Both the position numbers and the translations under genes were made by a program. 35,013 nucleotides of DNA from Vulcanisaeta thermophila (GTDB lineage: Archaea; Thermoproteota; Thermoprotei; Thermoproteales; Thermocladiaceae), in NCBI RefSeq assembly GCF_001748385.1, contig NZ_BCLI01000009.1:1-35013 (forward strand), written 5' to 3'. Positions within the stretch are counted from its first letter, which is position 1, and each line of letters starts with the position of its first letter. Below, piece after piece: positions 12,032-31,277 of the stretch. The notes below the pieces were generated by a model. The model was given only the letters and a program-made list of their open reading frames with translations. It was not told the origin of the DNA and did not search any database.

Positions 12032-15000
12032 TTACTTCGGCGGACCCAGCAAGCCAGCGAGCCTCCTTCTCCTCCAGTTGTTGTACTCTATCAGGGCTAT
12101 TACTATCAGTATTATCACTATGATTATTATCACAGCCAGCAGTATGAAGGTGCTCAGCGGCACAAAGCCCACACCAGGTATGTAGTACCCACTCACGGGT
12201 ATCGTCAGCGTCACGGTCTCGGTCTGCCCAGCCATTGCGCTGGTCAGCGTTAGTGAGGTGCTGGCGCTCTTACCATAGCTGTAGCCAGTCACTGTGCATG
12301 ATATGGAGCCACTGCTCGGTATTGGAACAACCACGGTCTGACTACCAACACCACTGGCCAGGGTCACGCCGGCGCACGTGACATTCACAGTGGCCTCACT
12401 GCTCAATGGGGCACCACTGGCACTCACTGGGTTAACTGTCAACTCCACAGCGGGAACACTAATCTGGAGTGGCGTTGTGGCGTTGCTGCTGGTCACGTAG
12501 TACGTGTACGTGTAGCCAAGGGATATGCCCTTCCAGGACTTCACAGTCACGGTGACCTCGGCAGCAAACGGTGAAACAGGCGTCACGAATGTCGCCGTGG
12601 TCAATTGACCCTGGGCATTGGTCGTGCCACTACCAGTAACCGCGGTGACTAACTTACAAGTGCTTGGTGATGGAACTAAGGGCGTTACACTGTACACATA
12701 ACCAACAATCGAGGCCGCAGTGGGCACCTGCGTAATAGTCACTGGGCACTCGGGCTCACTCACACTATAGCTCAGTGAGACACCAGGTGCTGGGCCAAAG
12801 CTCGATAGGACTACTACTATGTTGGCGGTGGTGAGTATGTTACTCAGCGTGAAGGATTCTACAGCCTCCGTAGCCGTAACAGTCCTCTGTATGCTGAAGG
12901 TATTCTCAAACACAGGCACCAGGTACAACGGTGAGTGTGAGGCAATGGCCTTCTCCACCTGGCTCCAGGTCAGTGGTGTGCCGTTGGCATTGTAGTAAGC
13001 CACTAGGTAGTAGTTAGTTGGCGGTAACTGGCTAGTGCCTGGTGGGTAGATCCTGAAATCAACGGGCGTTATTGAACCATCAGTGCCAGTCACATTGAAG
13101 CCCAGGAATTCATTACCTGTGCCGGGCTGATCAAACACCACAACAAGGGCACCAGGTATACCGGCACCGGCGGGCGTCCTTAGGTAGATCGTGGCTGGGA
13201 TCACGTGGGTCTCCACAGTGGACACCTCAAGGGCATTACCCAGCGTCTGCACATCAGTCAGTATGCTCGTATCGTAGATGTTGATGTACGGCACGGCACC
13301 ACCGGTTATCGTGTACAGTAGGCAGCTGTCGTACCAGTACACCACAGTCCTGCTATTGACGGGCATTGGCTGTAGCAACTTACCATTAGCGCCACTGAAG
13401 TCAATGGCCAGTGGTGCGGTGCCTGCGCAGAGCACGGGCGATGTGCCAGTACCGTAACCAACAATCATCTGGTTGGGCAGTGGCCTACCATCCCAGTCCT
13501 CAATGGTTGTCAAAGGTATCGTTGGGTATGTGAAGAATAGCTTGGCCTCGGTATCATTACTGGCACTGGGCAGTGGGCCTGTGTAACCAGCAATGTCCCA
13601 TTCACCACTCACTGGGTATGGCTTGTGATCATAAGCGAAGCTCTGGGCACCAACTATAGAGCTTGTGTAGTTGTAGTAGTACTCACCATACTGTGGTGTG
13701 GTTGTTGGATACTCAGGCACTGTCACGGTGGTATTCACGCTCGTCAACTCACTACCGGCATATAGTGTTGTGAAGTTAATGAACACGGGCTTCAGTGGGG
13801 CCTCAAGCTGCGTTATACTATACTTGTACGGACCAATCGAAACCGTACCATTCGGATACACCGTGAATGGCAGGGCGGTTCCGTTGGCTAGGTAGAATGT
13901 GGCGTTGGGTGGTGCGTAGTAGAACTTACCAGATAGGTCGGGTATGTACGGCGTGAAGTTGCCGAGGTCGCACCACTTAGCTGTGAACTCATAACTACTG
14001 CCGTAGATGTACTTAACAGGCACATCAACTATCGATCCAGATGGTATATACACCACCGATGTTGGTAACGTGACTGTGCCGCTTGGCTCGGAGTACGTCA
14101 CTCCATACAGGAACACTGGGAATGATGCGTTGTTGTAAATCTCCACACTCTCGAGGGCCGTGGTCCTCAGGTTGTAAACACCCCTAACAGCCTGTATTGC
14201 GTCTAGGGTCACATTCCACAGGTTCTCTGAGAATAGGGTGTCAAACTTTAGCATCGGTGCTGATGTGCCGCCGGTCCCGGCGCCGATTGCCGTCATGTAC
14301 AGCTGACCACTGCTTGAGACAACACCAGGCGGTAACTCACCAGTGTACACCTCAGTGGCGCCTTGCGTCGGCGTTATGTAGTTAAGCAGCACATAACTAC
14401 TCACGGCGTACTTGGGCAGTGGTGATATGCCGCCCGCCACGTACGGGGCTGGGGTTATGCTGCCAAAGCCAACATTTGTCGTGCCCGTGGTGCCCATCAC
14501 CCAGAACCTGGCAATCCTAGTACCATAGGCGCCGGTGGTTGGTGCCCACCATGGTAAGTCGAATGTAGCCTCTCCATTGGAGCCAACGGGTATTATCACG
14601 GTCAATGGGCTGCCGAAGTATGGATACCACGTGGCGTTCACGGTTGGGTACGTGAAGGTTACTTTCTTAGTGGTGCCTGTGGATGTCACGTAGAGGTTCT
14701 TAGTGTAGTAATTCACAACACCGCCGAAGCCACTGCTAATCACTGGGTACTCAAGGTGCACGTGGTCGGCAGATGCCGCTGGCGGTAGCACGTAGTACGT
14801 ACCACTACCATACACATAAAGCACCACGGCCAACTTAGTGGGTGACTGCACCTTGCTCGATATTGCCGCGTAGTTGAGGTACACATACAGCGGTATTGTC
14901 CTCACCATGGCCTCCTGGAACTCCTTGGTCACGTTAACACTGTACACGTAGTACCAACCAGTGCTGTTGGCCGCGTATATGGCTATGGTTGCGTTGGTCA

Positions 15001-18000
15001 CGGAGGTCATGCCAGTGGCGTTGACGTAGGCCTCCCACAACCTATAACTGGCGGCGTTGGGCACCAGGTAGTATGTGAAGTTGAGCGTACTGCTGTATTT
15101 CTGTGTAACCCCCACAGCATACGTTGGCGGATACACCCCACTTAACTCAGATGGTGTAACTGCTGAACCATTTAGTGTAACCTTGGTGGGCTCCATCAAC
15201 GACTCATTAACCAACAGCCTATACTCACTATAGGCGGCACTTGGCGCGTACAGGAATGTATCGTTGGGGTATGCAGTTGCGGTAATGGTGGTACCCACGT
15301 GTGTATATACTGGCAGGCCCATGGTTAGGTTGAAGGCAACCGCAGAAGGCGTGGTGTTGAACACGTTCGGGTATATACTGGTCATGTATAGTGGCGTTAA
15401 ACTCGTTGTTGGGCTTGTGGAGTTGACGAAGAAGCCCATTAGGTTGGGCAGCACGTAACCAGCCATGGAATACACATTGTTAATTAACTCCTGACTGGCC
15501 ACGGCCGCTGGGTTGTAGTCAAATGTCATACCATTGTAAGTCTCAGTGATGGCCTTAGCACCCTGCGTCAGCAATTCAAGCTTGGTAACATTAAGTATGC
15601 CGAAGCTGCCGACGTTGAATGGATAAGCTAGGTTGTTTATGAACCCTAGGGCAGTTGATGTACTTAATGCTGAACCGGGCATCACGTACTCCCTGTACAG
15701 CACGTCGGTGAATGTGAGGCCTATGTACGTGTTACCCACTGGGTATAGCCCGCTCTTGCTGGTCACGTTGAATGTAACTGGGTAGACGCTGGCCTCTATG
15801 ATTACTGTGCCGTTCGGCGGTATTGTGACTGGTGAGCCAGCTACGTAGACAGTGACTGGGCTTGTGGTGTAGGTCACCTGCCCAGTGGGCGTGACTATGA
15901 CATTCTCGTTAGGTTGTGGTACAGGTACTAACTGGTTGAACACCTCCTGCCCTAGGTAGTACACCTTGAAGTAGAACTTCTGCCCTGGCATGAAGAGCCT
16001 AACGAATATTGTACCCTCGTGAGGCACTATCGATGGGAAGTTGAATATGGCGAATGGCGATGCGGTGCTGTAATTGGCCAGCAAGGCGGCTAGTAGGTAG
16101 TAGCTGTAGTTGCCCGTGTACCATATCGTGTACTGCGTTAGGCTAATGGCACCGCTCTGGTATGCTGCCTGACTGGCCGCCATTAATGACTGGAACTCTG
16201 ACTCCAGGGCCTTATACTGAGGCTGCATCCAGGTCTGCCCAACAACCCTGAAGTCAGTGAGGTTGAGGTAGTACGTGAACTGTGGCGTTGTTGTTAACCA
16301 CTGGCTGGCTAGGTAGTACGGGCTGTACTGGTCAACGAGGACCAGGGTTACGTTGTAGTAGAATGATGGGCAGTACGTGGGTATACTGCATGGATAAACC
16401 GGCTGGCTGCTCAGGACATTGCCCTTAAGGTCGGTCACCACTATGTGTAGGGTCTCCACGGGCACCGTTACTGGGAACACCTGGCCACAGTACGTGGTGG
16501 GTGGCACGGCAAATGGCTTGTAGTAGATAACTAGGTCCTCATCAAATGGACCCCTGGTACCCAGCGTGTATGCATAATACTCGCTGGGTATGCCTAGGGC
16601 GGCTGCATAGTTCTCATAGGTCTGGCCGTACTTAGAAGACACCGGTGCGTATGAGTAGGCTTTGTCAGTGGCTGGGCTTATGGTCCTAACCTTAAGCATC
16701 ACGTAAGCCTTACCACTGGGCTGTATGTAACTGACGTTCAGGGGCACGTTCATTACGTAGACCATACCGCTGGAGTTGGTTATTGCATGCCACATCTCAA
16801 AGGTCCCATTGTAGTTGTAAACACTCACTGCGAAGCCCCACAACGGATACTGCGGCGTTGTCTGGCTCAGCACCTCAACGTTAACGTCAATCAATGGGAA
16901 GTAGACCACGTTAATTATGCCGGGTGTTAGCTTAATGTTGTAAATGGGCTGCCTAGTGGCGTAGCTAACACTGGGCATTACGTAGCCGTAGTAGTTCAGT
17001 GTGAAGTTGAAGACGGGGGTCATGGTCTCAATGTATGGAACGCCGGAGACGGAGCTCACCTCAAGGGCTATGGGCGCGGTTATCTTCATAACGTAAGCAT
17101 AGGAGCTCAACTGAACAGGTGGTAATGTAACGGTTACACCACTGGGCGTTAACTCAGTGGCGTAGACTGTGCCTGTGGTTATTGTCTCATTGCATAGGTT
17201 GAGGAATTGAACATTATAGACCGTGTACGTGGCTGCTATGAAGGCCCTCTCCACAGTAACATTTGCAAACACAATAGTCCCACTTGGCTTAACACCGGTG
17301 GGCGTCATAACAGCTAACTCAGAGGCGCTATCATAGAAGGATAATAGCGTGGTGTTGCCATTAGTCACCGGGTTGAATATTGGCTTCTCAGGTGTTGAGA
17401 CACCATACTGCTCATTATAGATGGAACCTGGCTTGTAACCCAGCTCATAAATGCCGAAGCCCACCGTCATGCCCTTGTACACAAGCCAGAAGGAGTAGTA
17501 GTAATACTGGGTGGTGACTGTGTAATTACTCTGCGTGAGTTTAGTCCAAGTACTGTTCACGCTTATTGATGCAGTTAGTGGTGGTGCTGGGAACCAATTA
17601 ACCTCTGGAGTAACCAACACGCCGGATATTGAGGACTCCTCGAAGGGTGGGAACTGGGCTATTGCGGCTGGGTAGTAAGTACCGTAGGTGGTCTTGTTAG
17701 TCCAGACCTGCTCCTCATAGTAAAGCACTCCGGAAACGGCGCCGCTTGGTGGTGTCGTGCTTATTATGGGCGTTGTTGAGAATGCGTAGTAGGCGGTTAT
17801 GTAGGGTACCTGGTTGGGACTCAGCGGTAACTGCTTCGAGGCGTTCACGCCTGGTGAGTACTGGGTTATGTTTATGAAGACGGGCATCACGGCCACGGTT
17901 ATATTATTAATTGTTGTCTCGGTTATTCCTGGCTTGACGGTGATTGTGGCTGTGAATACGGGCTCATTCTCATAGAATATCATGACCGCAGGTGGTGCCT

Positions 18001-19456
18001 GGGTGAATTGGGTAAACTTTGGTGCGCCTGGTCCCGTGCCCGTGAACTGACCCACCGGTACCAGGGCTGGCGTGACCTCGTAGTAAGGTAGGTAGTCCTC
18101 ACTAACCACTGTGGCGGTTGGTGTGGTCTCTAGGAGCCACTTCACGTAGAGCTTACCGGCGAGTATTGGGTTAGGTATGTAGGTGGCATTCTTAATTATT
18201 AAGTTGCCCTTAAGGTCGTAAACAGAACCAATATAGAACTCCACAACAGGGACACCAACCACTAAGGCTGGTGATGTACCGCTGGCATTATCCAGGGCTG
18301 TTAAAGCCCATTGCCCTTGAGAGCGGAAGTCGTAGGCGACCGCCACGTTGTACGAGGTCGGTGTTGTAGAGTTATTCTTTACGGCGGTCTTGTAGCTGAA
18401 TAGCGTGACTGACTGACCGCTTGGGTACACGTAACTAATGGTTATTGTAATGGGCTCCGCCGTAACACTTGGGTAGTTGTGATCGGCGGAGTTTAGGCCG
18501 CTGAATTCATTGGTTACATAGTAAATGGGGCCAAAACCTGTGTAGGTAGTACCGAAAATGTTCTGGGAGGCACTTGTAACGGTGGAGTTATAGGTCGAGG
18601 GACCAAAGGTTGTCACGCCAGTGCCTAGGGTCACTGAGGCCTTTAACTGGGGTGATGGCGATAATGGGCTTGGGGTTGTTGTGGTTGTTGTTGCACCCAC
18701 GTATAGGAAGAAGAAGTATAGGTCTGGGAGCACAACATAGAGGCCGGTAGATGTGCCCCACACGGGCCTGAATAAGTAGTAGGCGTAGTTTCCATCTGAC
18801 AGCTTCGTCTTTAAGTTTAAGGCATTTGCTATTGTTGGTGATACCTCCACGTAACTATCAAGTGATACTGTTGTTAGGTTTTTCATTAAGCTGTATAGGC
18901 TTGATTTTACTGTTGTCACGTTGAAGACCATCCAATTGGCCCCACCGTAGTTATTTAGCACTATTACCACCGTCCAGTTGGCATAGACCTCGCTTGGTGT
19001 TACTCCATTACTTAGTGTGGTGCTTACGGTCCAGGTCACGCCTCCCGTGCTGTTTGCTGTCGCCGTTGCCGTCATTAGTACTGGGTTTCCTAGGGTTGTG
19101 CCCGTGGAAGTTACGTAGTACACGTCCGAGGCATTGGCTATGTATATTGTGAAGGTCTTACCGGCGGTGAAGTACCAAGGCGTCATAGTCTTAATTAAAT
19201 TGTTATATACTGTTGAGATTGTTCCAGTAGGAAGCGTGTAAGTGGTGGTTAGTCTTGCGTCTGTTAGGTTCCAGTGCAGTGTGTATGTGTATGTTACCGG
19301 TGGTACTGGGACTGATGTGGGTCCGTACGGTCCATACGTTACGCCTTGTGCCAGGGCTGGGTGTCCCAGCCCGGTTACTACTCCTATTATTATTAGTAGT
19401 GTTACTACCAGTGGTGTTATTGTTGGTTTCCAGTTATGGGTTTTTGACCCGGTCAT
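12032..19456 (-). CDS. Giant membrane-anchored surface protein, 2474 aa
   Basis: One uninterrupted 7.4-kb gene. Residues 1-36 form a Sec signal peptide (TPLVVTLLIIIGVV...PALAQ). The body is very rich in Thr, Ser, Tyr, Val and Pro, poor in Lys and Arg, and full of N-x-S/T sequons. Near the C-terminus a single hydrophobic segment (FILLAVIIIIVIILIVIALI) is followed by NNWRRRRLAGLL, a stop-transfer anchor. The last ~300 residues before it look like beta-sandwich repeats (VTAVTGSGTTNAQGQL, VNVTCAGVTLASG). It should be an exported, glycosylated cell-surface protein: an S-layer component, giant adhesin or surface fibre. No enzymatic motif was seen. A TATA box 27 bases from ATG 19456 suggests its own leaderless mRNA, although the pilin-like gene ends only 126 bases upstream. 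Confidence 0.85.
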   Translation of the reverse strand: MTGSKTHNWKPTITPLVVTLLIIIGVVTGLGHPALAQGVTYGPYGPTSVPVPPVTYTYTLHWNLTDARLTTTYTLPTGTISTVYNNLIKTMTPWYFTAGKTFTIYIANASDVYYVTSTGTTLGNPVLMTATATANSTGGVTWTVSTTLSNGVTPSEVYANWTVVIVLNNYGGANWMVFNVTTVKSSLYSLMKNLTTVSLDSYVEVSPTIANALNLKTKLSDGNYAYYLFRPVWGTSTGLYVVLPDLYFFFLYVGATTTTTTPSPLSPSPQLKASVTLGTGVTTFGPSTYNSTVTSASQNIFGTTYTGFGPIYYVTNEFSGLNSADHNYPSVTAEPITITISYVYPSGQSVTLFSYKTAVKNNSTTPTSYNVAVAYDFRSQGQWALTALDNASGTSPALVVGVPVVEFYIGSVYDLKGNLIIKNATYIPNPILAGKLYVKWLLETTPTATVVSEDYLPYYEVTPALVPVGQFTGTGPGAPKFTQFTQAPPAVMIFYENEPVFTATITVKPGITETTINNITVAVMPVFINITQYSPGVNASKQLPLSPNQVPYITAYYAFSTTPIISTTPPSGAVSGVLYYEEQVWTNKTTYGTYYPAAIAQFPPFEESSISGVLVTPEVNWFPAPPLTASISVNSTWTKLTQSNYTVTTQYYYYSFWLVYKGMTVGFGIYELGYKPGSIYNEQYGVSTPEKPIFNPVTNGNTTLLSFYDSASELAVMTPTGVKPSGTIVFANVTVERAFIAATYTVYNVQFLNLCNETITTGTVYATELTPSGVTVTLPPVQLSSYAYVMKITAPIALEVSSVSGVPYIETMTPVFNFTLNYYGYVMPSVSYATRQPIYNIKLTPGIINVVYFPLIDVNVEVLSQTTPQYPLWGFAVSVYNYNGTFEMWHAITNSSGMVYVMNVPLNVSYIQPSGKAYVMLKVRTISPATDKAYSYAPVSSKYGQTYENYAAALGIPSEYYAYTLGTRGPFDEDLVIYYKPFAVPPTTYCGQVFPVTVPVETLHIVVTDLKGNVLSSQPVYPCSIPTYCPSFYYNVTLVLVDQYSPYYLASQWLTTTPQFTYYLNLTDFRVVGQTWMQPQYKALESEFQSLMAASQAAYQSGAISLTQYTIWYTGNYSYYLLAALLANYSTASPFAIFNFPSIVPHEGTIFVRLFMPGQKFYFKVYYLGQEVFNQLVPVPQPNENVIVTPTGQVTYTTSPVTVYVAGSPVTIPPNGTVIIEASVYPVTFNVTSKSGLYPVGNTYIGLTFTDVLYREYVMPGSALSTSTALGFINNLAYPFNVGSFGILNVTKLELLTQGAKAITETYNGMTFDYNPAAVASQELINNVYSMAGYVLPNLMGFFVNSTSPTTSLTPLYMTSIYPNVFNTTPSAVAFNLTMGLPVYTHVGTTITATAYPNDTFLYAPSAAYSEYRLLVNESLMEPTKVTLNGSAVTPSELSGVYPPTYAVGVTQKYSSTLNFTYYLVPNAASYRLWEAYVNATGMTSVTNATIAIYAANSTGWYYVYSVNVTKEFQEAMVRTIPLYVYLNYAAISSKVQSPTKLAVVLYVYGSGTYYVLPPAASADHVHLEYPVISSGFGGVVNYYTKNLYVTSTGTTKKVTFTYPTVNATWYPYFGSPLTVIIPVGSNGEATFDLPWWAPTTGAYGTRIARFWVMGTTGTTNVGFGSITPAPYVAGGISPLPKYAVSSYVLLNYITPTQGATEVYTGELPPGVVSSSGQLYMTAIGAGTGGTSAPMLKFDTLFSENLWNVTLDAIQAVRGVYNLRTTALESVEIYNNASFPVFLYGVTYSEPSGTVTLPTSVVYIPSGSIVDVPVKYIYGSSYEFTAKWCDLGNFTPYIPDLSGKFYYAPPNATFYLANGTALPFTVYPNGTVSIGPYKYSITQLEAPLKPVFINFTTLYAGSELTSVNTTVTVPEYPTTTPQYGEYYYNYTSSIVGAQSFAYDHKPYPVSGEWDIAGYTGPLPSASNDTEAKLFFTYPTIPLTTIEDWDGRPLPNQMIVGYGTGTSPVLCAGTAPLAIDFSGANGKLLQPMPVNSRTVVYWYDSCLLYTITGGAVPYINIYDTSILTDVQTLGNALEVSTVETHVIPATIYLRTPAGAGIPGALVVVFDQPGTGNEFLGFNVTGTDGSITPVDFRIYPPGTSQLPPTNYYLVAYYNANGTPLTWSQVEKAIASHSPLYLVPVFENTFSIQRTVTATEAVESFTLSNILTTANIVVVLSSFGPAPGVSLSYSVSEPECPVTITQVPTAASIVGYVYSVTPLVPSPSTCKLVTAVTGSGTTNAQGQLTTATFVTPVSPFAAEVTVTVKSWKGISLGYTYTYYVTSSNATTPLQISVPAVELTVNPVSASGAPLSSEATVNVTCAGVTLASGVGSQTVVVPIPSSGSISCTVTGYSYGKSASTSLTLTSAMAGQTETVTLTIPVSGYYIPGVGFVPLSTFILLAVIIIIVIILIVIALIEYNNWRRRRLAGLLGPPK

Positions 19457-19478
19457 CGCTGAAGCCCTGGTGTTTGGG

Positions 19479-19488
19479 GTTTTTAAGG
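19479..19488 (-). promoter_or_regulatory. TATA box of the giant surface-protein gene
   Basis: GTTTTTAAGG (plus-strand reading) is centred 27 bases from ATG 19456. More AT-rich TATA-like sequence near 19540-19555 may give a second, longer-leader start. Confidence 0.55.
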
Positions 19489-19582
19489 GACTCGTTTGGA
19501 ATTCCCTGGAACAAAGCCCTGGGATTTTATGTTCGTTGGAACTTATAAATATTATATTTATAATTCTCCGTGGAATATATAT

Positions 19583-20701
19583 TTAGCCATTGGGTGCCTG
19601 TTGGTAGTACGTGGGGGGTGCACTTATCGTGAGCCAGTTTGGGGGTTGGGCTTTCAGGCCGTTTATGTCCCATATAAACCACCCGGTTTTTTGCCCCGAC
19701 GCCAAATCAAACCTAATAACCATTATTAGGTAGTACTCGCCGTTAGGTACATGGTTTATTACTACCTTTATGGTGTTATTGCTTGTGTACTTCCATGGGT
19801 ATTGACAGTTAGTTAGGGGTACTAGGGACCCATTGTTAAGTACTGCGGCGCACTGTATATTGGCCCAGTGTGGGAGGGTGCTGCTTAGTGATAAGACGTT
19901 GAAGTAAACATACTCCACTGGGACGTGGAATGTTCCGTTGTAGAAGTCTATGGTGTATATGAACGCCGTGCTGTTTACGGGGGTTACTGTTATGCTGGGC
20001 CAATAACCGTAGTAGAATGATGAACTGTATAGTGGCCACCAACCAATGCTCAGGGGGCCTGGTACTGGGGCTGGGCAGCTACTACCCTGGGGAACATAGG
20101 GGTTAAAGGTGGCGTAGTTATAGTAGTTTATGCATGCCTGTGCGCCGGCCCCGTAGTCCTTGGTTACGTAGAAGTTCCCGTTGGTTAGTGGATCCACTAC
20201 GTAGTTTGGGTCTATGTGTAGTAGGTAGTACGTGCCCGATGGTGCCTGGAGTATTATTCCTCCGTAGTTCCCGCCGGGGCTTGTGCCGTTTAGTGTTGTG
20301 ATGCTTACCCAGTGGTATAGGTAATTGCTTAGGTAGTAGTCGTTGTAGTTGCTTGTTTGTGGGTCTATGAGTATGGGCCCTGCGTTGGTTAGTAGTAGTA
20401 CTGGGTTGCTGTCCTGTGGTGTGTATGTGGTGGTGGTTTCGTTGATCCACTCAAGCCCCCTGTTGGTTATTGCGGCGATTATTGTTATGGGCCCCTTGGT
20501 ACTCATTAACTGACCATTACTCATTACAATACCCGAGTATAGGCTCTCCACCTCGCCGGTTCTCTGTACATGAGTTGCCGCTGCCTGGCTTAGTGATAGT
20601 ATTAGTGAGTATAGGCTTAGTGTCATTACCAGTGCCATGCCCAGTGCCATGAGTACTAGGATTCCCGCCATTATTGTTGATAGTGAACCCTTACTCCCCA
20701 T
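19583..20701 (-). CDS. Exported protein with pilin-like N-terminus, 372 aa
   Basis: The N-terminus MGSKGSLSTIMAGILVLMAL has a short charged head, Lys-Gly, then a ~25-residue hydrophobic helix, as in archaeal class III (type IV pilin-like) signal peptides; an uncleaved N-terminal anchor is the alternative. The remaining ~320 residues are Tyr/Asn/Pro/Thr-rich and extracellular in character (sequons, YYLLHIDPNYVVDP, two Cys near the middle and two near the end). ATG 20701 is chosen over TTG 20704 because it is 26-27 bases from the TATA box. It lies directly upstream of the giant surface protein on the same strand, so the two may assemble together. No known family recognised. Confidence 0.75.
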   Translation of the reverse strand: MGSKGSLSTIMAGILVLMALGMALVMTLSLYSLILSLSQAAATHVQRTGEVESLYSGIVMSNGQLMSTKGPITIIAAITNRGLEWINETTTTYTPQDSNPVLLLTNAGPILIDPQTSNYNDYYLSNYLYHWVSITTLNGTSPGGNYGGIILQAPSGTYYLLHIDPNYVVDPLTNGNFYVTKDYGAGAQACINYYNYATFNPYVPQGSSCPAPVPGPLSIGWWPLYSSSFYYGYWPSITVTPVNSTAFIYTIDFYNGTFHVPVEYVYFNVLSLSSTLPHWANIQCAAVLNNGSLVPLTNCQYPWKYTSNNTIKVVINHVPNGEYYLIMVIRFDLASGQKTGWFIWDINGLKAQPPNWLTISAPPTYYQQAPNG

Positions 20702-20722: not shown

Positions 20723-20763
20723 CCTTATAAGGCACTCATGGCGCTAATTAAAAGGTTTATAAT
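20723..20763. promoter_or_regulatory. Divergent promoter pair
   Basis: CCTTATAAGG at 20723-20732 is centred 26-27 bases from ATG 20701 on the minus strand. GGTTTATAAT at 20754-20763 serves the plus-strand gene at 20788, about 29 bases away. The first box is itself palindromic. Confidence 0.7.
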
Positions 20764-29220: not shown

Positions 29221-29622
29221 ATGGCTAATAAAACGGACAGGAACATTGACACAGAGAGGATTGAGTACCTAAGCACTGAGACGTCTAGGAGGGTGCCCAC
29301 TAAGTTGGAGTTATTATTCGTGGATAACCCACAGAACTTCATGAAGGATTTCAGGGTGGTGTTTGATCTATCCGTCATTAAGGAGATAACCCTGGGCAGG
29401 AGCCCCGAGAATATGGTGGTTATCCCAGACCCCACGGTATCCAGGAAGCACGCCGTGATCACGGTGGTCAATGATGAGGGTTTGATAAAGGATCTCAACA
29501 GCACCAATGGAACCTACGTGCTGGAGAATGGGTCATTCCACAGGATTAATGAGTATAGGTTTAGGAGTGAGGTTGTGGTCAGGCTTGGTTACTACACGGT
29601 GATAAAGCTTTCATTGATGTAG
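29221..29622 (+). CDS. FHA-domain protein
   Basis: A 133-residue protein with an N-terminal 35-residue leader and one FHA domain: ITLGRSPEN, IPDPTVSRKHAVI and IKDLNSTNGTYV are the conserved phosphothreonine-binding loops, with the Arg, Ser-Arg-x-His and Asn-Gly residues all present. FHA domains bind phosphothreonine peptides. The leader has Thr-rich TERIEYLSTETSRR, a plausible kinase target. It is convergent with the membrane kinase at 29611, and their 3' ends overlap by 12 bases, so the two probably act in one signalling pair. ATG 29221 is preferred over TTG 29215. TATA-like CTTTAAATT lies about 31 bases upstream. Confidence 0.92.
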   Translation: MANKTDRNIDTERIEYLSTETSRRVPTKLELLFVDNPQNFMKDFRVVFDLSVIKEITLGRSPENMVVIPDPTVSRKHAVITVVNDEGLIKDLNSTNGTYVLENGSFHRINEYRFRSEVVVRLGYYTVIKLSLM

Positions 29623-31266
29623 TGAGTTCATTAGTGAGGATATAACGGTGAGGTACTCACTAACGGATTGGGGCCTCCTGTCCGGGTTCAACTCCAGCCC
29701 CTTCATCACCACATCGGCGAGCTGTGGCGGTACGTCAACCCTGAACCTGGTAATGGGCGGCACCAAAACCTGCCCTGTGGTTAGCCTATGCATGTGCGGG
29801 TTCACCCCCGTGAGCATTTCATAGAGGATGCATGATAGTGAGTAGATGTCCGACCTAACATCCGCAATGCCCCTACTAACCTCGGGTGCTGAGTAGGCTA
29901 TGGAGAATTGAGACACGTAGGACTTACCACCAATCATGATCTTGGCAGCGCCCAAATCACCGAGCTTAACAATGCTCCTCTCCTTATCCTTAAATAGTAT
30001 ATTCTCAGGCTTCAGGTCTAGGTGTAGTATATTCATACTGTGGAGCTCCGAGAGGGCCATGGCGATTGAATGGGCAACCCTAAGGAATTGGGGCAGGTCC
30101 AACGGCCCCTTCTCACGGAGTAGGTCCCTCAATGAGCCACCCTCCATGTACTCCATGACCAGGTAGGGAGGGTCCTCTAGGTAGCTCTCCAGGGATTTAT
30201 AGGGTATCTTATCATCGGAGGGTATGTGAACCTCAAAGACCCTAACAATCCTGGGGCTATCAATGAGCAGGTACTCACTCATCTCCTTCCTGAATGAGTT
30301 GAGGACCCTTTGATCATTAGCCAGCGGGTTCCCCCTGGAGTCCCTGTCCTTAAGGACCTTGATTGCGTAGACCCTACCACTCTCATCCCTACCCTTCAAA
30401 ACGTAGCTAAAGCCACCCACTGCAATGACCCCCTCGATTAAGTACTTACCACCTATCCACGCACCAATCCAGGAAAGCGGCGGTGCCAATCCCCTAATAT
30501 ACCTAAGCTTGGGCGATCTTAGGTATAGTATGATTAGTACCAGGGCCGTTATTGACGTTAACACCCAGTAAACGTTTGTTATGGAGTAGAACATCCTAAC
30601 TAGGATGAGTAGGGCTGTTATCATGGCAATGTAATTGGTGAATCTCCTGAGCATGACCATTGAGGAGAGGGCGGCGGGTAATTCGAGGAAGACCGCCGTG
30701 TAACTATTATGCATATAGTACAACTGCAGTGCCATGGGTACTACTAACACCATGCCCAGGTAAATCATTACCCAATCCATGACATCCTCAGGGAGATTAA
30801 CATTGTACATAAGCACCGAGTTCCTTAGGTTTATTATTATGGATGCCATGAAGATGAGGGCGGCATTAACAAGTAGGTAATAACTGGGTAGTAAAATCAA
30901 TGAGTAGCCCTGGTACAGGAGGTATGATAGGTAAACAGCCAATAATGCACTGGACACCCTAATGTCCAAGCCCCTGAGGCCGAGAATAACTATCGAGAGT
31001 CCCAGTACAACGGCTAGTGTGTACTGTATCTCGGCGAATGAGCTATAAAGCGCGAAACCCAGTGCCAGTACTATCTCGGTTATTAGGGGTATCGAGATCC
31101 AGGAAGACCTGAGTGGGTACCTACGGAACAGGTTGTACGAGAGCACGAAGAGCGCGATTAGTAGCATCATTGAGTTGAAATTGACACCAATGATGGGAAG
31201 GAGGCTAAGATAGAGTATGGTACCGGGCAGCGCCTTTATTACCTTATCCGCATTAATCGAAACCAC
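29611..31266 (-). CDS. Membrane-bound Ser/Thr protein kinase
   Basis: About 551 residues. The first ~255 form roughly 8-10 hydrophobic segments (for example IVLALGFALYSS, VMIYLGMVLVVPMAL, VLTSITALVLIILYL). The rest is a Hanks-type kinase: VGGFSYVLKG glycine loop, K303 (YAIKVL), EYMEGGSL hinge, D417 in HLDLKPEN (HRD replaced by HLD), D437 in GDLGAAK (DFG as DLG), and SAPE. All catalytic residues are present, so it should be active, with the kinase in the cytoplasm. The membrane part could sense a signal; no known sensor domain was seen. GTG 31266 is 27 bases from a TATA box, so it is preferred to TTG 31275. Its likely partner or substrate is the convergent FHA protein. Confidence 0.9.
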   Translation of the reverse strand: MVSINADKVIKALPGTILYLSLLPIIGVNFNSMMLLIALFVLSYNLFRRYPLRSSWISIPLITEIVLALGFALYSSFAEIQYTLAVVLGLSIVILGLRGLDIRVSSALLAVYLSYLLYQGYSLILLPSYYLLVNAALIFMASIIINLRNSVLMYNVNLPEDVMDWVMIYLGMVLVVPMALQLYYMHNSYTAVFLELPAALSSMVMLRRFTNYIAMITALLILVRMFYSITNVYWVLTSITALVLIILYLRSPKLRYIRGLAPPLSWIGAWIGGKYLIEGVIAVGGFSYVLKGRDESGRVYAIKVLKDRDSRGNPLANDQRVLNSFRKEMSEYLLIDSPRIVRVFEVHIPSDDKIPYKSLESYLEDPPYLVMEYMEGGSLRDLLREKGPLDLPQFLRVAHSIAMALSELHSMNILHLDLKPENILFKDKERSIVKLGDLGAAKIMIGGKSYVSQFSIAYSAPEVSRGIADVRSDIYSLSCILYEMLTGVNPHMHRLTTGQVLVPPITRFRVDVPPQLADVVMKGLELNPDRRPQSVSEYLTVISSLMNSLHQ

Positions 31267-31277
31267 GCAAAGCAAGT

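What the first reader, a model, noticed from the sequence alone, without database searches (positions are those of the whole stretch)
12032..20701. Giant 2474-residue surface protein with a pilin-like partner
A 7.4-kb gene encodes an exported, sequon-rich, C-terminally anchored protein. Directly upstream is a 372-residue protein with a class III signal-like N-terminus. I recognise neither as a known S-layer or pilus family. They could form a new surface layer, adhesive thread or cell-contact system, served by the nearby sugar genes.
Basis: partly seen in the sequence, partly recalled or inferred. Interest (0 to 1): 0.65.

Follow-up and report, generated by a model that had tools for sequence, protein, structure and literature searches.

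The report
Giant surface-layer protein of Vulcanisaeta
The giant gene most likely encodes the glycosylated, membrane-anchored protein that builds the crystalline coat of these heat-loving archaea; it belongs to a family found across the whole order, already proposed once in Thermoproteus tenax, while its pilin-like neighbour occurs only in this genus and is not a fixed partner.

Summary
The 2474-aa ORF 12032-19456(-) is real, exported, strongly sequon-rich (57 vs 25.9±4.5 in shuffles) and C-terminally anchored. The 372-aa ORF (ATG at 20701, -) lies directly upstream. Neither has a significant Pfam, NCBIfam or PDB sequence match.

"Unrecognised" does not hold for the giant. Colinear homologues exist in all eight genera sampled of the order (Vulcanisaeta, Caldivirga, Thermoproteus, Pyrobaculum and others). 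The T. tenax homologue is exactly 2663 aa, the length of TTX_1887, named in 2011 as S-layer candidate. Shorter relatives (about 1500-1900 aa) with the same anchor occur elsewhere in the class. The family has a near-invariant C-terminal TM-plus-EYxxWRRxRL tail, an Ig-like stalk of variable length, conserved sequons and its own conserved promoter. Best reading: single-component S-layer glycoprotein.

The 372-aa protein is Vulcanisaeta-specific, adjacent to the giant in 7 of 9 carrying genomes and separated in 2. Other genera have unrelated exported proteins in that slot. Its class III signal is only partly conserved and its fold model is poor. The two genes have separate conserved promoters. The nearby rmlAB genes are not syntenic in relatives. 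S-layer function remains inferred: no proteomic or structural proof was found.

The parts
12032..19456 (-). 2474-aa giant exported, C-terminally anchored protein: predicted S-layer glycoprotein
19346..19456 (-). giant residues 1-37: Sec-type signal peptide (GLGHPALAQ)
   Evidence: hydrophobic segment 9-39; conserved in relatives
15701..17119 (-). giant residues 780-1252: best-conserved core, modelled as beta-sandwich domains plus two long helices
   Evidence: AF2 pLDDT 87.4, pTM 0.82; 24-44% identity across families
13022..13516 (-). giant residues 1981-2145: second conserved block (PL....DW..RPL.NQ)
   Evidence: invariant columns in 16 giants
12035..12163 (-). giant residues 2432-2474: C-terminal TM helix and near-invariant cytoplasmic tail IEYNNWRRRRLAGLLGPPK
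19477..19493 (-). conserved promoter-like element (GAGTCCCTTAAAAACCC; relatives GAGTCCCTTATAAACCC) 28 nt before the giant's ATG, consistent with a leaderless transcript
   Evidence: alignment of five Vulcanisaeta loci
19537..19565 (-). conserved AT-rich element (AATTATAAATAT..TATTTAT..GTTCCA) upstream of the giant's promoter
19583..20701 (-). 372-aa pilin-like, N-terminally anchored, beta-rich protein, Vulcanisaeta-specific
20723..20736 (-). conserved TATA-like element (AGTGCCTTATAAGG) 26 nt before the small gene's ATG

Best explanation
The giant is the S-layer glycoprotein of this Vulcanisaeta species, the local member of an order-wide family that includes T. tenax TTX_1887. Steps shown from sequence: Sec-type export signal, many conserved N-glycosylation sequons, a beta-rich core, a C-terminal Ig-like region of variable length, one C-terminal TM helix with a near-invariant basic cytoplasmic tail, and a private conserved promoter. 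Steps inferred: the N-terminal ~2000 residues form the p6 lattice seen in this order by electron microscopy; the C-terminal Ig-like string is the pillar that crosses the ~25 nm quasi-periplasmic space; the TM helix holds the canopy without a separate SlaB-type anchor subunit. The upstream 372-aa protein is a separately transcribed, genus-specific exported protein held by an N-terminal helix (pilin-like). It is an accessory or a neighbour in a variable surface-gene slot, not a required second subunit.
For: Homologues in 40 of 45 genomes and 8 of 8 genera of the order (24 of 25 good-quality genomes), one full-length copy each where assemblies are complete. Colinear over full length with 158 invariant columns in 16 giants. 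The T. [quoted passage not shown] Near-invariant C-terminal tail. Distant relatives of about 1480-1860 aa with the same anchor in other families of the class and phylum. Sequon enrichment and conservation. Ig-like Pfam hits in relatives: CarboxypepD_reg 5/13, Big_1 4/13, PEGA, Fn3-like. Stalk modules vary in number, most in Caldivirga. Core model is confident and beta-rich; best PDB matches are adhesin and ancillary-pilin beta proteins, with a Sulfolobus SlaA-SlaB assembly chain among weaker ones. Private conserved promoter. Thermoproteales have p6 S-layers with ~30 nm spacing, pillars to the membrane and a 25 nm interspace (PMC5744192). Six 264-kDa protomers per 30-nm cell equal a ~2.5 nm protein sheet, compatible with a delicate lattice.
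Against: No proteomic, glycoproteomic or structural identification of this family as the lattice protein was found. Codon usage gives no sign of exceptional expression (rank 56 of 150). No profile match to any solved S-layer protein sequence, and PDB fold matches have low TM-scores. Only residues 780-1252 were modelled. Five genomes lack a hit; all five are fragmented drafts.
Confidence: 0.82

Rival explanations
1. The giant and the 372-aa protein form a dedicated two-component surface system: the small protein, cut by a prepilin peptidase or left as an N-terminal anchor, is a stalk or thread subunit that works with the giant.
For: Adjacent, same strand, in 7 of 9 carrying genomes. Both exported. 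Crenarchaeal S-layers with two proteins are known (PMC5744192). Thermoproteus/Pyrobaculum have an N-anchored ~640-aa protein in the same slot.
Against: Small protein absent from all other genera that have the giant. Separated from the giant in two genomes, one with ~18 kb between, one beside a ribosomal protein S4-like gene. Separate promoters. No profile similarity to the Thermoproteaceae slot protein. Caldivirga has a sedolisin-like protein there.
Confidence: 0.12
2. The giant is a surface adhesin or cell-contact thread rather than the lattice protein, and another protein forms the S-layer.
For: Core fold matches are mostly bacterial adhesins and ancillary pilins. Codon usage not exceptional.
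Against: Order-wide, near-universal, single full-length copy, colinear conservation and conserved anchor, unlike patchy, fast-changing adhesins. No rival order-wide candidate was seen, though none was sought systematically.
Confidence: 0.1
3. About the 372-aa protein only: it is an ordinary major or minor type IV pilin or pilus adhesin assembled by a pilus machine encoded elsewhere; its place beside the S-layer gene is incidental.
For: Short leader ending in G, hydrophobic helix 7-55, then beta strands. Stand-alone pilin genes are common in archaea and V. distributa has seven pilus ATPases (PMC4858521).
Against: No Pfam/NCBIfam pilin hit; -2 residue not always basic and +1 is Ser; no pilus ATPase or TadC gene among the neighbours tested; model confidence low (pLDDT 47).
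Confidence: 0.4

Closest known systems
Thermoproteus tenax TTX_1887 (S-layer candidate, PMC3189178)
   Same: Colinear homologue; S/T/N-rich, signal sequence, C-terminal TM, same tail EYSNWRRRRL..PPK; one full-length copy
   Different: About 27% identical; 2663 vs 2474 aa; longer C-terminal stalk region; different upstream neighbour
Sulfolobales SlaA/SlaB two-component S-layer
   Same: Large beta-rich, N-glycosylated surface protein over a quasi-periplasmic space (known); a SlaA-SlaB assembly chain is among weaker fold matches of the core
   Different: No profile match to PDB SlaA/SlaB sequences; the giant has its own TM anchor, so no separate anchor subunit is needed
1500-1900-residue anchored proteins of Thermofilum-type genomes
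   Same: Same conserved blocks in order, one per genome, TM plus HEYxxWRRRRLA-like tail
   Different: About 700 residues shorter; low overall similarity
Archaeal type IV pilins (PilA-like)
   Same: Short leader, N-terminal hydrophobic helix then beta-rich head in the 372-aa protein
   Different: 372 aa, no family hit, imperfect cleavage motif, no pilus genes beside it

Membership tests
TTX_1887 giant family of Thermoproteales | Full-length colinear similarity | tested here: met
   27% identity to the T. tenax protein, 158 invariant columns in 16 members
TTX_1887 giant family of Thermoproteales | C-terminal TM plus EYxxWRRxRL tail | tested here: met
Archaeal S-layer protein (functional class) | Export signal and membrane anchor | tested here: met
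   hydropathy and sequence
Archaeal S-layer protein (functional class) | Enriched, conserved N-glycosylation sequons | tested here: met
   57 vs 25.9±4.5; 40 shared by four species; actual glycosylation not testable here
Archaeal S-layer protein (functional class) | Tandem Ig-like / beta-sandwich domains | tested here: inconclusive
   Beta-rich confident core, Ig-like Pfam hits in relatives, but only one region modelled and no strong S-layer fold match
Archaeal S-layer protein (functional class) | Very high expression | tested here: inconclusive
   Codon usage rank 56/150; conserved promoter
Archaeal S-layer protein (functional class) | Forms a 2D lattice on the cell | not testable with these tools
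   needs microscopy and proteomics
Sulfolobales SlaA/SlaB | Sequence homology to SlaA or SlaB | tested here: not met
   Profile search of PDB sequences to E=10 gave no S-layer chain
Type IV pilin (372-aa protein) | Class III signal with basic -2 and G/A -1 before a hydrophobic helix | tested here: inconclusive
   G(-1) invariant; -2 is K,S,R,R,K,A
Type IV pilin (372-aa protein) | Match to a pilin family model | tested here: not met
Type IV pilin (372-aa protein) | Pilin fold: long N-terminal helix and beta head | tested here: inconclusive
   Helix 7-55 then strands, but pLDDT 47
Type IV pilin (372-aa protein) | Cleavage by prepilin peptidase | not testable with these tools
   needs an assay

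The most novel reading that the evidence does not exclude
Vulcanisaeta has a two-component envelope in which a prepilin-peptidase-processed, pilin-like protein is a structural partner of the giant S-layer protein, a design I know of in no described archaeal S-layer.
Probability: 0.08. Interest if true: 0.7.

Novelty: new member of a known kind. Interest (0 to 1): 0.4.

Why it matters
In the papers found here, the S-layer of Thermoproteales has been imaged for decades without its protein being proven. This work ties the single published candidate to an order-wide family with defined anatomy (lattice part, variable stalk, conserved anchor and tail) and relatives across the class. That gives direct targets for proteomics, cryo-tomography and glycoproteomics. 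The near-invariant cytoplasmic tail is an unexplained feature that may show how these coats attach to something inside the cell.

Tried and rejected
Pfam, NCBIfam and PDB sequence searches of both proteins gave only sub-threshold, unrelated hits. A viral-contig scan for the giant found nothing. Codon adaptation as a proxy for expression was uninformative. The fold model of the 372-aa protein is too poor for a fold search, so none was run. Homology of the 372-aa protein to the N-anchored ~640-aa protein in the same slot of Thermoproteus/Pyrobaculum was tested by profile comparison and rejected. The sugar genes as a conserved part of the locus were rejected.

Full report
What is there. The giant ORF is 12032-19456(-), 2474 aa; the small ORF is 372 aa from ATG 20701(-) or 373 aa from TTG.

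Anatomy of the giant. It has one N-terminal hydrophobic segment ending ALAQ, one C-terminal TM helix, then EYNNWRRRRLAGLLGPPK. Composition is rich in T, S, Y, V and P with few charges (K+R 3.6%). It has 57 sequons against 25.9±4.5 in shuffles. Forty are at the same alignment column in four Vulcanisaeta giants, and sequon Asn are kept more often than other Asn (53/57 vs 51/74). Mature mass is about 264 kDa, pI 5.0.

Family. In 45 genomes of the order, 40 have homologues, in 8 of 8 genera and 24 of 25 good-quality genomes. Sixteen complete giants of 2474-2938 aa align colinearly: 74-77% identity to the window protein within the genus, 34% to Caldivirga, 24-27% to Thermoproteus/Pyrobaculum, with 158 invariant columns. 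A profile of the core block finds relatives in Thermofilum-type genomes (1676-1857 aa; genus assigned from genome size and my own knowledge) and some other families. Most of these share the conserved blocks in order and a TM plus EYxxWRRxRLA-like tail.

Fold. Residues 780-1252, aligned with 28 relatives, were modelled with pLDDT 87.4 and pTM 0.82: beta-sandwich domains plus two long helices. The best PDB matches are a Bacillus surface protein, a streptococcal ancillary pilin and a Bacteroides adhesin; a chain of the Sulfolobus SlaA-SlaB assembly ranks fifth (E 2.8e-3). TM-scores are low throughout, so this supports a surface beta protein, not a specific family. Relatives carry Ig-like Pfam domains, and the membrane-proximal module is repeated a variable number of times, most in Caldivirga.

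The small protein. It exists only in Vulcanisaeta: 9 of 81 genomes of the class, 1 of 30 genera. It lies directly upstream of the giant in seven genomes (G000, G015, G017, G018, G019, G020, G021). In G016 about 18 kb with a sedolisin-like gene and other surface-protein genes lies between them. In G022 it sits beside a ribosomal protein S4-like gene with no giant downstream. The GSLSTI motif is invariant; the residue before that Gly varies. The model suggests a long N-terminal helix and beta strands but is poor. The slot upstream of the giant is variable: a ~640-aa N-anchored protein with a T/P-rich linker in Thermoproteus/Pyrobaculum and a sedolisin-like protein in Caldivirga/Thermocladium.

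Expression and surroundings. A GAGTCCCTTATAAACCC-type element 28 nt before the giant's ATG and an AT-rich element upstream are conserved in five Vulcanisaeta loci. The small gene has its own TATA-like element. Codon usage is unremarkable. The rmlA/rmlB genes are not near the giant in any relative examined; the two glycosyltransferases recur near it in one.

Mechanism. Thermoproteales have p6 S-layers with ~30 nm spacing, pillar-like protrusions and a 25-nm interspace (PMC5744192). Inference: the large N-terminal part forms the lattice, the Ig-like C-terminal string forms the pillar, and the TM helix anchors it. Six 264-kDa copies per 30-nm cell equal a ~2.5-nm sheet, compatible with a thin network. 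Shown: export signal, anchor, sequons, conservation, core fold class, promoter conservation. Inferred: lattice formation, pillar, glycosylation. Not shown: abundance.

Verdict. The giant is a new member of a known kind, with the published candidate now tied to an order-wide family. The pilin-like partner is a genus-level accessory or neighbour.

Noticed in passing
G000:C8:1542-2006 (L003/L079); relatives in nearly every Vulcanisaeta genome searched: A stand-alone copy of the giant's C-terminal module (signal peptide, one Ig-like domain, TM, same basic tail; ~172-190 aa, 45-54% identical), between an HDAC-family gene and MobA-like genes, about 15-20 kb from the giant in complete genomes.
   Followed up: partly
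G000:C1:459332-460321 (L078:8964-10346): A 460-aa protein related to the giant's N-terminal domain (33% over 20-357) is transcribed divergently from a pilus-type (VirB11-like) ATPase gene; the same arrangement occurs in G017.
   Followed up: partly
L056:9055-11400, L057:4603-6537, L059:5930-8059: A sedolisin-like exported protein sits directly upstream of the giant in Caldivirga and a related genus; a relative lies between the pilin-like gene and the giant in G016.
   Followed up: partly
L063:12387-14363 and equivalents in all complete Thermoproteus/Pyrobaculum genomes examined: A ~640-aa protein with an N-terminal TM, T/P-rich linker and beta-rich body lies directly upstream of the giant: a possible second S-layer component of that family.
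   Followed up: partly
C-terminal tail of the giants (window 12035-12091): The cytoplasmic tail EYxxWRRxRL is among the most conserved stretches of a fast-evolving surface protein, which suggests an unknown intracellular partner.
   Followed up: no
window 29611-31275 (-): 554-aa protein with a C-terminal Ser/Thr protein kinase domain.
   Followed up: no
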